Shown here one piece after another: positions 324 through 1,934 of a DNA stretch of 5,919 bases. Position 1 is the first letter of the stretch. The number at the start of each line of letters is the position of its first letter. Source of the DNA: Chloroflexota bacterium (GTDB lineage: Bacteria; Chloroflexota; UBA5177; JANWHV01); NCBI GenBank assembly GCA_025450375.1, contig JANWHO010000359.1, forward strand, positions 1 to 5,919, in the 5' to 3' direction. The notes beneath the pieces are model-generated. The model saw nothing but the letters and a program-made list of their open reading frames with translations, made no database searches and was not told where the DNA came from. A program made the translations under genes and the position numbers.

Positions 324-413
324 CCGCAAAGGATCCCGCTATTTCCAGGAGGTCATGTATAATTATGCATTTATCATGGATCCTGGACGGGTGGATTGAC
401 GGATCCGCAAAGG
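324..413 (+). repeat. Pair of CCGCAAAGG direct repeats flanking the candidate promoter
   Basis: CCGCAAAGG occurs at 324-332 and again at 405-413, 81 bp apart. The first copy runs into GGATCC on its right and the second is preceded by GGATCC on its left, so the flanks are partly mirrored. A third GGATCC lies between them at 378. The pair brackets the TATAAT at 358-363. This could be a regulator or initiator binding pair, but two nine-base copies are modest evidence. Confidence 0.35.
345..386 (+). promoter_or_regulatory. Candidate promoter and operator for the XRE-rep operon
   Basis: A consensus -10 hexamer TATAAT lies at 358-363 in an AT-rich island, about 100 bp before the XRE start codon. 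No good -35 is visible at 16-18 bp spacing, so if this is a promoter it probably needs an activator or is weak. The hexamer is bracketed by an imperfect inverted repeat: CCAGGAGGTCATG at 345-357 and CATGGATCCTGG at 375-386, whose reverse complement is CCAGGATCCATG. A dyad around a -10 is where an autoregulating XRE repressor would be expected to sit. The hexamer and dyad are seen directly; the regulatory role is inferred. Confidence 0.4.
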
Positions 414-460
414 TCAGGATATGCTGTGGGGAATAGGAGACAACGGAGAGGGGCGAGCGG

Positions 461-862
461 GTGGAATCGAGTTTCGGCGCCCTATTGCGAACCTATCGCG
501 AGCGGGCCGGTCTGGCCCAGAACGGATTGGCCCGGGCGAGCGGCGTGAACGTGGGCACGGTGAATCGGCTCGAACGAGGCCAGCGCCTCCCGGCAGGACG
601 CGAGCAGGCCCTGGCCCTGGCCCAAACCCTGGGACTGAACCCTTCCGAGACCAACCGGTTGCTGGCTGCCGCCGGCCTTCCCGCCGAGGGGTTCGGTCCC
701 GAAATTACCAGCCACCCCACGATCCGCGCCCTGGTCGACCTCCTGCAAGACGAGACGATTCCTCGGGCCGATCGGGAGGATCTCCTGGCCACCCTCGAGC
801 GGTATGTGCATCTCGTGGCGCGGGCCAATGGCCGGTCCATCGGAGGTAGCGATGCCGCGTGA
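461..862 (+). CDS. XRE-family (Cro/CI-type) helix-turn-helix regulator
   Basis: A 133-aa cytoplasmic DNA-binding protein. Residues about 6-60 form a canonical XRE domain (GALLRTYRERAGLAQNGLAR, then the recognition region SGVNVGTVNRLERGQRLP). It is followed by LNPSETNRLLAAAGLP, a segment resembling those after the HTH in many actinobacterial and Chloroflexota XRE proteins, and a predicted helical tail (about 85-122) that may dimerise. The GTG at 461 is the first possible start after an in-frame stop at 434 and has a purine-rich ribosome site (GGAGAGGGG, 445-453). It overlaps the downstream replication-protein gene by 11 bp, so the two are almost certainly cotranscribed and translationally coupled. 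By analogy with phage and plasmid modules it probably controls that operon; the target and any effector are inferred. It has no sensor or peptidase domain, so it is not a CI/LexA-type self-cleaving repressor. Confidence 0.85.
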   Translation: MESSFGALLRTYRERAGLAQNGLARASGVNVGTVNRLERGQRLPAGREQALALAQTLGLNPSETNRLLAAAGLPAEGFGPEITSHPTIRALVDLLQDETIPRADREDLLATLERYVHLVARANGRSIGGSDAA

Positions 863-1757
863 CGACGATTTCTCGGCCGGCCCCTATGACCTCGAATCGC
901 CCCCCGATTGGACGGCCTTCCCTGGTCTCTATCCTCCGCTCTATACCCAGACCCCGGACATTTTCTTCGATTGGGTGGCGCCCTTCCTGCCCGAAATCGA
1001 GCTCCGCGTCCTCCTCTACCTGATCCGCCGCACCCTTGGCTTCAAGAAGCAAGGCGATCAGATTACGGTCGAACAGATCGGCGGCGGGATCGTCACCCGC
1101 GAGGGATCCCGCCTGGACTGGGGCGCCAGGCTCGGCGAGCGGAGCGTGCAACGGGCCCTGGCCGGATTGGAAACCAAGGGGCTGATCGAGCGGCATCGCC
1201 AACTCGACCCCGACCGCGGGTGGCGGCCCAGCTACATCCGCCTCCGCCTCTGCGATCAGGACGGGGAAAGCTGGGCCATCCGCGGCCGCGCCCACTCTAC
1301 CCCTGGTGTCTCGTCAGACACCAGGGAGGTGTCCACCCAGACATCACCCAGCCGTCCCAACAGACACCAGGGAGGTGTCCCAGCGGCCACCCCGGATCAC
1401 CGGGAACCTCGTGTCCCACCAGACACCTACAAGAAACAGAGATTACACTACACAGAACAGCAAGAAACAGCCCCCCGTCCCCCCATTCAGGAAACAGGTA
1501 CGGGGGCGCGGCCGGCACCCGATGGATTGTGGGACGCGATCAAAAGAGAGTTGGCGGCGGTGCTGGCCCCAGCGGTCTATCGAGCGCGGGTCGCCTCCAC
1601 CACCCAGATTTCCCATGACGGATCGGTCCTGATCGTGCGCTGCCCCACGGCCGCCGCCGCTCAGTGGATCGAGCGGCAACTGGCTCGAATGATCCGTGAG
1701 ATCGTTTCTGGCCTGGCCGAGGATCCTCCGACTGTTCGCTTCACCGCCCCCGAATAA
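852..1757 (+). CDS. Replication initiator-like protein: O-like winged helix plus DnaA domain I-like C-terminus
   Basis: A 301-aa protein. The ATG at 852 is chosen because GGAGG (842-846) lies 5 bp upstream, inside the end of the XRE gene; in-frame upstream starts lack such a site. Residues about 33-130 (IFFDWVAPFLPEIELRVLLY, RRTLGFKKQGDQIT, then RSVQRALAGLETKGLIERHR) match the winged-helix pattern of phage O-type and plasmid replication proteins. Residues about 148-225 are a Pro/Thr/Gln/Arg-rich, probably disordered linker. Residues 226-298 follow DnaA domain I: LWDAIKRELAAVLAP, then VLIVRCP, QWIERQLARMI and a closing TVRF. In DnaA this domain self-associates and recruits DnaB helicase. The inferred role is to bind an origin through the winged helix and bring in the helicase through the tail, as lambda O and P do together. 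The linker-coding DNA carries iteron-like repeats. There is no AAA+ ATPase domain, so it is not a DnaA itself. A purely regulatory winged-helix protein remains possible. Confidence 0.75.
   Translation: MPRDDDFSAGPYDLESPPDWTAFPGLYPPLYTQTPDIFFDWVAPFLPEIELRVLLYLIRRTLGFKKQGDQITVEQIGGGIVTREGSRLDWGARLGERSVQRALAGLETKGLIERHRQLDPDRGWRPSYIRLRLCDQDGESWAIRGRAHSTPGVSSDTREVSTQTSPSRPNRHQGGVPAATPDHREPRVPPDTYKKQRLHYTEQQETAPRPPIQETGTGARPAPDGLWDAIKRELAAVLAPAVYRARVASTTQISHDGSVLIVRCPTAAAAQWIERQLARMIREIVSGLAEDPPTVRFTAPE
1302..1428. repeat. Iteron-like dyad repeats inside the rep gene (candidate origin)
   Basis: CAGACACCAGGGAGGTGTCC occurs exactly twice (1315-1334 and 1361-1380), with a diverged copy starting CAGACATC at 1338 exactly midway, giving a 23-bp period (starts 1315, 1338, 1361). 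GGTGTC is in the same phase at 1305, 1328 and 1374, with GCCGTC at 1351. Each full copy is a dyad, GACACC-N5-GGTGTC. The left edge adds a 9-bp inverted repeat, CCTGGTGTC (1302-1310) and GACACCAGG (1317-1325). A further unit with the same GTGTC-to-CAGAC spacing of nine lies at 1411-1427, out of phase with the 23-bp series. Because 23 is not a multiple of 3, copies 1, 2 and 3 are read in three different frames (SDTREV in the first, RHQGGV in the third), so selection is on DNA. The initiator's own binding sites are the likeliest explanation; an operator array is the alternative. Confidence 0.75.
1428..1470. other. A-rich, GC-poor tract next to the iterons (candidate unwinding element)
   Basis: By hand count 16 of 43 bases are G or C (about 37 percent), in a gene that is otherwise strongly GC-rich. 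The plus strand is almost pure A/C/G with AAGAAACAG at 1431-1439 and 1462-1470, and a further GAAACAG at 1491-1497. Two C6 runs follow (1471-1476 and 1479-1484). Iterons followed by a purine-rich, easily melted stretch is the layout of lambda-type origins. It is also part of the coding sequence (linker residues about 192-207), so a compositional accident of the linker is the alternative. Confidence 0.45.
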
Positions 1758-1788: not shown

Positions 1789-1841
1789 AACTATCCATCC
1801 ATTTACTATGTTTACTAAACATAGTAAATGGATGGATAGTT
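1789..1841. repeat. Perfect 53-bp AT-rich palindrome
   Basis: Arms of 26 bp (1789-1814 and 1816-1841) are perfectly complementary around a single C at 1815; I checked each pair by hand. The flanking bases 1788 and 1842 do not pair. Each arm contains a tandem near-repeat, TTTACTA at 1802-1808 and 1811-1817 on the plus strand. It lies 32 bp after the rep stop codon. No U-run follows on either strand and the stem is AT-rich, so a normal intrinsic terminator is unlikely. It could extrude as a cruciform or fold as a long RNA hairpin. Candidate roles are a single-strand origin, a recombination or resolution site, a binding site for a dimeric protein, or an antisense-RNA stem. Confidence 0.9.
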
Positions 1842-1900: not shown

Positions 1901-1934
1901 AAGAGGCCGGTCGCTTGGCAGCGACCGGCCTCTT
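1901..1934 (-). terminator. Rho-independent terminator of the sulfurtransferase gene
   Basis: A perfect 15-bp GC-rich inverted repeat (1901-1915 and 1920-1934, core GAGGCCGGTCGC) surrounds a 4-base loop. On the minus strand it starts 19 bp after the sulfurtransferase stop codon and is followed by TTTGCGTTTT, a broken U-rich tract. The plus-strand exit side lacks a U tract, so it mainly serves the minus strand, although such a stem could also block rightward transcription from the rep operon. Confidence 0.85.

What the first reader, a model, noticed from the sequence alone, without database searches (positions are those of the whole stretch)
1302..1428. 23-bp iteron array embedded out of frame in an initiator-like gene
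Seen: dyad repeats (GACACC-N5-GGTGTC) with starts at 1315, 1338 and 1361 and in-phase GGTGTC at 1305, plus another unit at 1411-1427. The first and third copies share 20 identical leading bases yet are translated in different frames, so DNA and not protein is conserved. Known: lambda and related phages keep their origin, with dyad iterons, inside the initiator gene in the region encoding the linker. Inference: this is a self-contained lambda-O-style origin in a non-lambda-like bacterium, with the gene's own product as binder.
Basis: partly seen in the sequence, partly recalled or inferred. Interest (0 to 1): 0.82.

Follow-up and report, generated by a model that had tools for sequence, protein, structure and literature searches.

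The report
Replication origin hidden inside its initiator gene
A gene from an uncultured Chloroflexota bacterium appears to carry, written into its own coding sequence, the DNA repeats and easily melted tract at which its protein product would start DNA replication, as in phage lambda, and relatives of the gene sit on what look like the second chromosomes of two cultured bacteria.

Summary
Window 852-1757 encodes a 301-aa initiator-like protein: lambda-O-like winged helix, disordered linker, DnaA-domain-I fold. The linker DNA holds dyads GACACC-N5-GGTGTC on a 23-bp register (exact at 1317 and 1363, degenerate at 1340), read in different frames, then an A-rich tract (1428-1500). DNA is what is conserved: against L001, the one close relative with DNA, the six good half-sites agree at 36 of 36 bases, the rest of the linker at 61 of 120 (all nine half-sites: 46 of 54). 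34 of 38 linkers of the family could encode the exact dyad (0.13 expected), at spacings 23/46/69 only. Distant relatives carry other repeats at the same place. Lambda O passes the same repeat test.

Best reading: a lambda-type in-gene origin; the product binds the dyads, the tract melts, the C-terminal domain recruits helicase. Binding, melting and firing are untested. Relatives lie on contigs matching chromosome 2 of Thermobaculum terrenum and of Ca. Chlorohelix, where no full dnaA match was found; GC skew is compatible, not decisive. In-gene origins are known (lambda O, repC, RepA_N): a new variant, not a new kind.

The parts
396..425 (+). sigma-70-like promoter TTGACG-N18-TATGCT upstream of the gene pair
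   Evidence: Same hexamers and spacer in L001 at 5544; consensus scan
461..862 (+). XRE-family (Cro/C1-type) HTH protein gene, overlapping the start of the initiator gene by 11 nt; probable regulator
   Evidence: PF13560 E 8.7e-14; similar gene directly upstream in L001 and 32 nt upstream in L012 (by eye)
852..1757 (+). initiator-like gene, 301 aa: winged helix, disordered linker, DnaA-domain-I fold
   Evidence: PHROG 345 E 2.5e-8; PF04492 15.9 bits and PF11638 20.7 bits, both below their cut-offs; model and fold search; profile A2 hits DnaA 4tps_B at E 6.4e-4
912..1265 (+). region encoding the lambda-O-like winged helix, the most conserved part
   Evidence: alignments A2 and A3; N-terminal half of the model is low confidence
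1305..1310 (+). GGTGTC half-site in 23-bp phase (remnant of an upstream iteron)
   Evidence: not kept in L001 (3 of 6 bases); several homologues can encode a dyad at this -23 position
1317..1333 (+). iteron dyad GACACC-N5-GGTGTC, codon phase 0
   Evidence: both half-sites identical in L001
1340..1356 (+). degenerate iteron dyad GACATC-N5-GCCGTC
   Evidence: sequence; not kept in L001 (4 and 3 of 6 bases)
1363..1379 (+). iteron dyad GACACC-N5-GGTGTC, codon phase 1
   Evidence: both half-sites identical in L001
1410..1427 (+). outlying CGTGTC-N6-GACACC, off the 23-bp phase, abutting the A-rich tract
   Evidence: both half-sites identical in L001
1428..1500 (+). A-rich, strand-asymmetric tract with CAAGAAACAG at 1430 and 1461 in two reading frames and GAAACAG at 1491; presumed unwinding element
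   Evidence: 30 A, 23 C, 12 G, 8 T; repeats; third-position A excess p 0.015; Q-E-T motifs also in many distant relatives
1518..1745 (+). region encoding the C-terminal DnaA-domain-I fold (residues 223-298)
   Evidence: pLDDT 81-91 by blocks of ten; Foldseek 4tps_D E 1.4e-5, 4tps_B TM 0.86 by target length, rmsd 1.3; chain 4tps_B is DnaA
1789..1841 (.). perfect 26-bp inverted repeat with 1-nt spacer, A+T-rich, 31 bp after the gene; role unknown, not needed by the explanation
   Evidence: its half AAACATAGTAAAT is also downstream of the gene in L001 at 7044

Best explanation
Window 852-1757 is a replication initiator gene with its origin inside it. The N-terminal winged helix, probably as dimers, binds 17-bp dyads spaced about two helical turns apart in the linker-coding DNA; the resulting complex strains and opens the adjacent A-rich tract (1428-1500), and the C-terminal DnaA-domain-I-like domain brings in the replicative helicase, a job that lambda O hands to a separate P protein. 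Shown by computation: the dyads, their register, their conservation as DNA, the tract, the C-terminal fold and kinship to O. Inferred: binding by the gene's own product, opening, helicase recruitment, firing. The patchy distribution and a dnaA on another contig in G001 suggest a secondary replicon or an integrated element rather than the main chromosome origin.
For: Off-frame dyads on a 23-bp register. Six good half-sites 36 of 36 bases identical to L001 versus 61 of 120 elsewhere in the linker (Fisher 1.9e-9); with all nine half-sites 46 of 54 versus 51 of 102 (1.2e-5); third bases at identical residues 25 of 27 in half-sites plus tract versus 63 of 118 in the winged-helix part. 34 of 38 linkers of the family (the window's and L001's own included) can encode the exact dyad, 0.13 expected from residue shuffles; all spacings 23, 46 or 69. 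At p <= 0.01, direct repeats exceed synonymous shuffles in 10 of 15 genes and the third-position-A tract in 9 of 15 (11 and 13 at p <= 0.02), against 6 and 1 of 200 random coding windows. Relatives have other repeat sequences, often spaced near 22-24 bp or multiples. Lambda O: iteron starts 20, 24, 23 apart, direct-repeat p 0.0025, 26 A in the 45 nt after iteron 4 versus 23 of 45 here. PHROG 345. DnaA-domain-I fold.
Against: No experiment. PF04492 and PF11638 are both below Pfam's cut-offs for the window protein. DNA of close relatives is one locus only (L001), where three of the nine half-sites (1305, 1340, 1351) are not kept; the rest of the family evidence is back-translation of proteins, which are related to each other. 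4 of 15 genes (L009, L010, L012, L177) show no direct-repeat excess (L009 does on inverted repeats, p 0.0125), and L171 (0.06) and L174 (0.63) show no clear A-tract excess; only 9 of 15 pass both measures at 0.02. L018, an O-like megaplasmid gene, showed me neither repeats nor tract (by eye). Among the six window ORFs scanned with Pfam none is a helicase loader, ParA or ParB. No DnaA box by pattern in the gene. The lambda control is not significant on the third-position-A measure (p 0.11). The random-window control is not a set of disordered linkers and comes from one replicon. The N-terminal half of the model is low confidence.
Confidence: 0.8

Rival explanations
1. The dyads are operators of the upstream XRE repressor (or of the initiator acting as its own repressor), so the array is an internal control site and not an origin.
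For: An XRE gene overlaps the initiator gene in the window, abuts it in L001 and ends 32 nt upstream in L012; dyad symmetry suits a dimeric HTH protein.
Against: Of the 15 tested genes, 13 have enough upstream DNA held, and only 3 (window, L001, L012) show an XRE gene there; L009, L013 and L171-L174 have in-gene repeats (direct or inverted excess) and no such gene in the ORFs listed (by eye). No GACACC/GGTGTC lies near the promoter at 396-425. The A-rich tract is unexplained by this reading.
Confidence: 0.1
2. The gene is a relic or resident of a prophage, plasmid or integrative element; the origin is or was real but serves that element, not a stable chromosome.
For: Patchy: in the class of G001, 5 of 7 genomes match at E <= 1e-3, but only G001 with a full-length relative; the best hits of the other four cover only the query's C-terminal third; 6 of 400 in the phylum match at E <= 1e-8. 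Several relatives occur more than once per genome (G302, G443). PHROG O-like families are phage proteins.
Against: Neighbours in the window are rhodanese, GGDEF and GntR genes, and none of the six ORFs scanned matched a phage, integrase or mobilisation family; the gene is intact and its repeats look constrained across the family; kin on 330-kb and 1.6-Mb contigs; only weak hits in the phage (12 records, 28.6% identity over 35%) and plasmid (1 record, 39.8% over 27%) collections.
Confidence: 0.3
3. The repeats reflect a repetitive, low-complexity protein linker and codon bias, with no DNA function.
For: The linker is modelled with very low confidence; 6 of 200 random coding windows also reach p <= 0.01 (15 of 200 p <= 0.05).
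Against: The exact copies are read in different frames; synonymous shuffles that keep the protein give 2.7 pairs against 25; the good half-sites are perfectly kept while about half of the rest of the linker has changed.
Confidence: 0.03

Closest known systems
Phage lambda O gene and ori-lambda
   Same: Initiator with related O-like profile; dyad iterons inside the initiator gene, spaced 20-24 bp, followed by an A-rich tract (PMC5043065 section 8 read). A regulator gene (cII) lies upstream of O in the record; that it is an HTH protein is recalled.
   Different: Different iteron sequence; no P-like loader gene after it; C-terminus has a DnaA-domain-I fold; no phage gene recognised in the window.
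RepA_N plasmids (pSK41 Rep)
   Same: Initiator boxes centrally within rep, in DNA coding for the linker between a DNA-binding N-terminal domain and a partner-binding C-terminal domain (PMC5703833, passages).
   Different: Different protein family and C-terminal partner (DnaG primase there); Firmicutes plasmids.
repABC replicons (repC)
   Same: Origin within the initiator gene, with an A+T-rich region where silent changes abolished replication; used by secondary chromosomes (PMC3155836 and PMC6090056, passages).
   Different: No iterons found in repC; linked repA and repB; chromids of this type only in alphaproteobacteria per PMC6090056.
Chromosomal DnaA domain I
   Same: Fold of the C-terminal domain (4tps, 2wp0, 2e0g), with profile support.
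   Different: Here it is C-terminal, with no AAA+ or DnaA-box-binding domain recognised.

Membership tests
Lambda-O-type initiator | winged-helix O-like N-terminal domain by profile | tested here: inconclusive
   PHROG 345 E 2.5e-8; PF04492 15.9 bits against a cut-off of 28.7; 24 of 39 family members match PF04492 at E <= 0.01; relatives L009, L010, L011, L013, L015 exceed the cut-off, L012 (27.4 bits) and L001 (16.5) do not
Lambda-O-type initiator | dyad iterons inside the initiator gene in the linker-coding part | tested here: met
   lambda control
Lambda-O-type initiator | A+T-rich tract next to the iterons | tested here: met
   A-rich tract 1428-1500; melting itself not tested
Lambda-O-type initiator | helicase-loader gene (P) directly downstream | tested here: not met
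   next recognised gene is a rhodanese on the other strand
Lambda-O-type initiator | product binds the iterons as a dimer and opens the tract | not testable with these tools
   needs bench work
repABC replicon | RepC family protein with linked repA and repB | tested here: not met
   no such Pfam match in the six window ORFs scanned
Rep_3 iteron plasmid initiator | Rep_3 (PF01051) domain | tested here: not met
   no match in the window protein; 0 of 3 genomes G158, G288, G001
RepA_N plasmid initiator | RepA_N (PF06970) domain | tested here: not met
   no match in the Pfam scan of the window protein at E <= 1
DnaA | AAA+ domain and DnaA-box-binding domain | tested here: not met
   only a domain-I-like match

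The most novel reading that the evidence does not exclude
Lambda-O-type in-gene origins are a third class of secondary-chromosome origin, beside iteron and repABC types, and drive chromosome 2 of Thermobaculum terrenum and of Ca. Chlorohelix allophototropha, each with its own dyad sequence that co-evolves with its initiator.
Probability: 0.35. Interest if true: 0.75.

Novelty: new variant of a known kind. Interest (0 to 1): 0.6.

Why it matters
How large secondary replicons of Chloroflexota start replication is open: a 2026 study of Ktedonobacteria chromid-like contigs reports that Pfam searches found no canonical Rep-family initiator on them (PMC13289182, section 17 read), and a 2018 review knew only iteron and repABC chromids (PMC6090056, passages). 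This family gives a concrete, testable initiator and origin in one gene, with members on what appear to be two second chromosomes of cultured bacteria. It also shows how an origin can be seen from protein sequences alone, by back-translating a linker. It does not explain the Ktedonobacteria case: whether Ktedonobacteria were among the 400 genomes searched is not told.

Tried and rejected
GC skew as proof of origin. In G158 C2 (T. terrenum chromosome 2) the raw circular minimum (1,026,662) is 2.2 kb from the gene's middle, but the detrended minimum is at 53,041, about 99 kb away, the T-A minimum near 24,772 and the keto minimum near 11,978; the sharpest slope change is at 1,027,000 with 250-kb arms but at 53,000 with 100- and 400-kb arms and elsewhere with shorter ones. 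In G288 C2 (Chlorohelix chromosome 2), sampled at 49%, the gene is at a local minimum but the raw global minimum is 106 kb and the detrended one 177 kb away. Compatible, not decisive. Miltoncostaea 815-kb megaplasmid: O-like gene followed by AAA ATPase and DnaB-like genes, but I saw no repeats or tract in it and the sampled skew did not settle its origin.

'Unique to second chromosomes' rejected: a weaker O-like gene with repeats of its own, seen by eye, is on G288 C1 near a ParB match (L222). DnaA box in the gene: none by pattern. RNA element: no Rfam match at gathering threshold. Anti-phage defence: no PADLOC match for the initiator. Viral contigs: no relative. DnaA_N is not detected by Pfam in the two second-chromosome proteins L009 and L013, so the helicase step is weakest there.

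Rows dropped before the counts. One search used 15 genes with linker and tract held, region ends set by hand after looking at the sequences. Left out: L003 and L018 (translated), L217, L219 and L222, fragments L179, L182 and L189, and L168, L180, L181, L185, L186 and L188, in which my script found no frame; most loci were not examined. In one search, 38 of 39 rows were scored; P0038 was too short. The six half-sites were chosen after L001 had been seen; one search gives the count with all nine.

Full report
What is there. The window appears to be a whole contig (one search lists P0001 on a contig of 5919 bases) whose named kin are Chloroflexota. An XRE gene (461-862) and a 301-aa gene (852-1757) overlap behind a promoter-like TTGACG-N18-TATGCT at 396, the same hexamers and spacer as in relative L001 at 5544. 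Exact dyads GACACC-N5-GGTGTC sit at 1317 and 1363 with a degenerate one at 1340 between them, on a 23-bp register, the exact ones in codon phases 0 and 1. A half-site lies at 1305 and an off-phase unit at 1410-1427. An A-rich tract follows at 1428-1500.

Is it DNA that is conserved. In L001 (68% protein identity, genome G001) the linkers align without gaps. The six good half-sites agree at 36 of 36 bases, the rest of the linker at 61 of 120; third bases at identical residues agree 12 of 12 in half-sites, 13 of 15 in the tract, 63 of 118 in the winged-helix part and 4 of 10 elsewhere in the linker. The half-sites at 1305, 1340 and 1351 agree only at 3, 4 and 3 of 6; counting all nine gives 46 of 54 versus 51 of 102 (Fisher 1.2e-5). 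For the other homologues only proteins were available: of 39 rows of A2, 38 linkers were long enough (the window's and, as P0013, L001's among them), and 34 can encode the exact dyad, against 0.13 expected from residue shuffles; placements with at most one mismatch number 77 against 3.09, and every spacing is 23, 46 or 69. 'Can encode' is not 'does encode', and the rows are related.

Synonymous-shuffle test. In 15 genes with linker and tract held, near-identical 10-mer pairs exceed protein-preserving shuffles at p <= 0.02 in 11 (window, L001, L011, L013, L014, L015, L171-L175); not in L009, L010, L012, L177, of which L009 is significant on inverted repeats (p 0.0125). Clustered third-position A exceeds at p <= 0.02 in 13, not in L171 (0.06) or L174 (0.63). 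At p <= 0.01 the counts are 10 and 9, and 9 of 15 pass both at 0.02. L171-L174 are related to each other. Controls: 200 random 234-nt coding windows of G158 C2 gave 6 with p <= 0.01 on direct repeats and 1 on third-position A (15 and 2 at p <= 0.05); phage lambda O gave p 0.0025 on direct repeats, 0.0075 on inverted and 0.11 on third-position A.

Distant relatives. Two phylum searches of 400 genomes found 6 (protein query, E <= 1e-8) and 11 (profile A3, E <= 1e-6) genomes with a match. Searches of the 158 genomes of the class of G288 and G158 found 12 and 13, and of 29 genomes of another class 3, two of them only in the C-terminal part. Their repeats differ in sequence (for example GGTAAA..TTTACC dyads in L171-L174, several starts 22-23 bp apart or near multiples; GGTAGTAGCAATTTGATACC in L013) but lie in the same place, before an A-rich tract whose peptide reads Q-E-T repeatedly in many. 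The 45-mer richest in A starts inside the linker region in 14 of 15 genes.

The protein. The N-terminus matches O-like profiles, below Pfam's cut-off for the window protein but above it for L009, L010, L011, L013 and L015. The C-terminal domain is modelled well (81-91 by blocks of ten) and matches DnaA domain I: 4tps_D E 1.4e-5, 4tps_B TM 0.86 by target, rmsd 1.3; DciA domains come further down. A profile of the family also finds 4tps_B, named DnaA, at E 6.4e-4. PF11638 is below cut-off in the window (10 of 39 family members match at E <= 0.01), above it in L010 and L012, and undetected in L009 and L013. That DnaA domain I binds DnaB is recalled, not tested.

Which replicon. Unknown for the window. 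G001 has its best dnaA match on another contig (C13; the gene is on C118). G158 has contigs of 2,026,947 and 1,074,634 bases, the sizes printed for T. terrenum chromosomes 1 and 2 (PMC3035366 passages). G288 C2 is 2,453,413 bases in a 6.1-Mb genome, as for Ca. Chlorohelix with chromosome 2 at 2.45 Mb (PMC10972752 passages). In both, the best dnaA match is near base 1 of C1; G158 C2 has no Bac_DnaA match and G288 C2 only a 258-bp one in a 271-aa frame of a kind that recurs on C1, C3 and C4. No ParB match is on G158 C2; G288 C2 has three, the best 47 kb from the gene. No Rep_3 match in either genome; other initiator families were not searched genome-wide. Skew is compatible but its estimators disagree. 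O-like genes are not confined to second chromosomes (L222).

Novelty. In-gene origins are known in repC, pSK41 Rep and lambda O. My literature searches (open-licence PubMed Central papers only) showed no report of this family as an origin; two searches returned no paper, the others were seen as listings, with passages or a section read of eight papers in all. I file it as a new variant: lambda-O-like architecture with a DnaA-domain-I-like C-terminus, in Chloroflexota.

Noticed in passing
window 1789-1841: Perfect 26-bp inverted repeat with a 1-nt spacer just after the initiator gene; its half AAACATAGTAAAT also lies downstream of the gene in L001 (7044). Role unknown.
   Followed up: partly
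window 1901-1934: Perfect 15-bp G+C-rich inverted repeat with a 4-nt loop between convergent genes, perhaps a terminator.
   Followed up: no
L222 (G288 C1:1481719-1482075): O-like gene with its own in-gene repeats (TTTAGACC) on G288 C1, about 1 kb from a ParB match.
   Followed up: partly
L219 (G281 C10:229302-229598): O-like gene with repeated GTCAACGAAGTAGACC units, then an A-rich stretch that contains TTATCCACA.
   Followed up: no
L011, L014, L015: Proteins that appear to carry two O-like winged-helix domains in tandem.
   Followed up: no
L018 (NZ_CP064357.1, 787117-791868): O-like gene followed by AAA ATPase and DnaB-like helicase genes on an 815-kb Miltoncostaea oceani plasmid.
   Followed up: partly
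window 4444: TGTGGATAA, a DnaA-box-like word upstream of the GGDEF gene.
   Followed up: no
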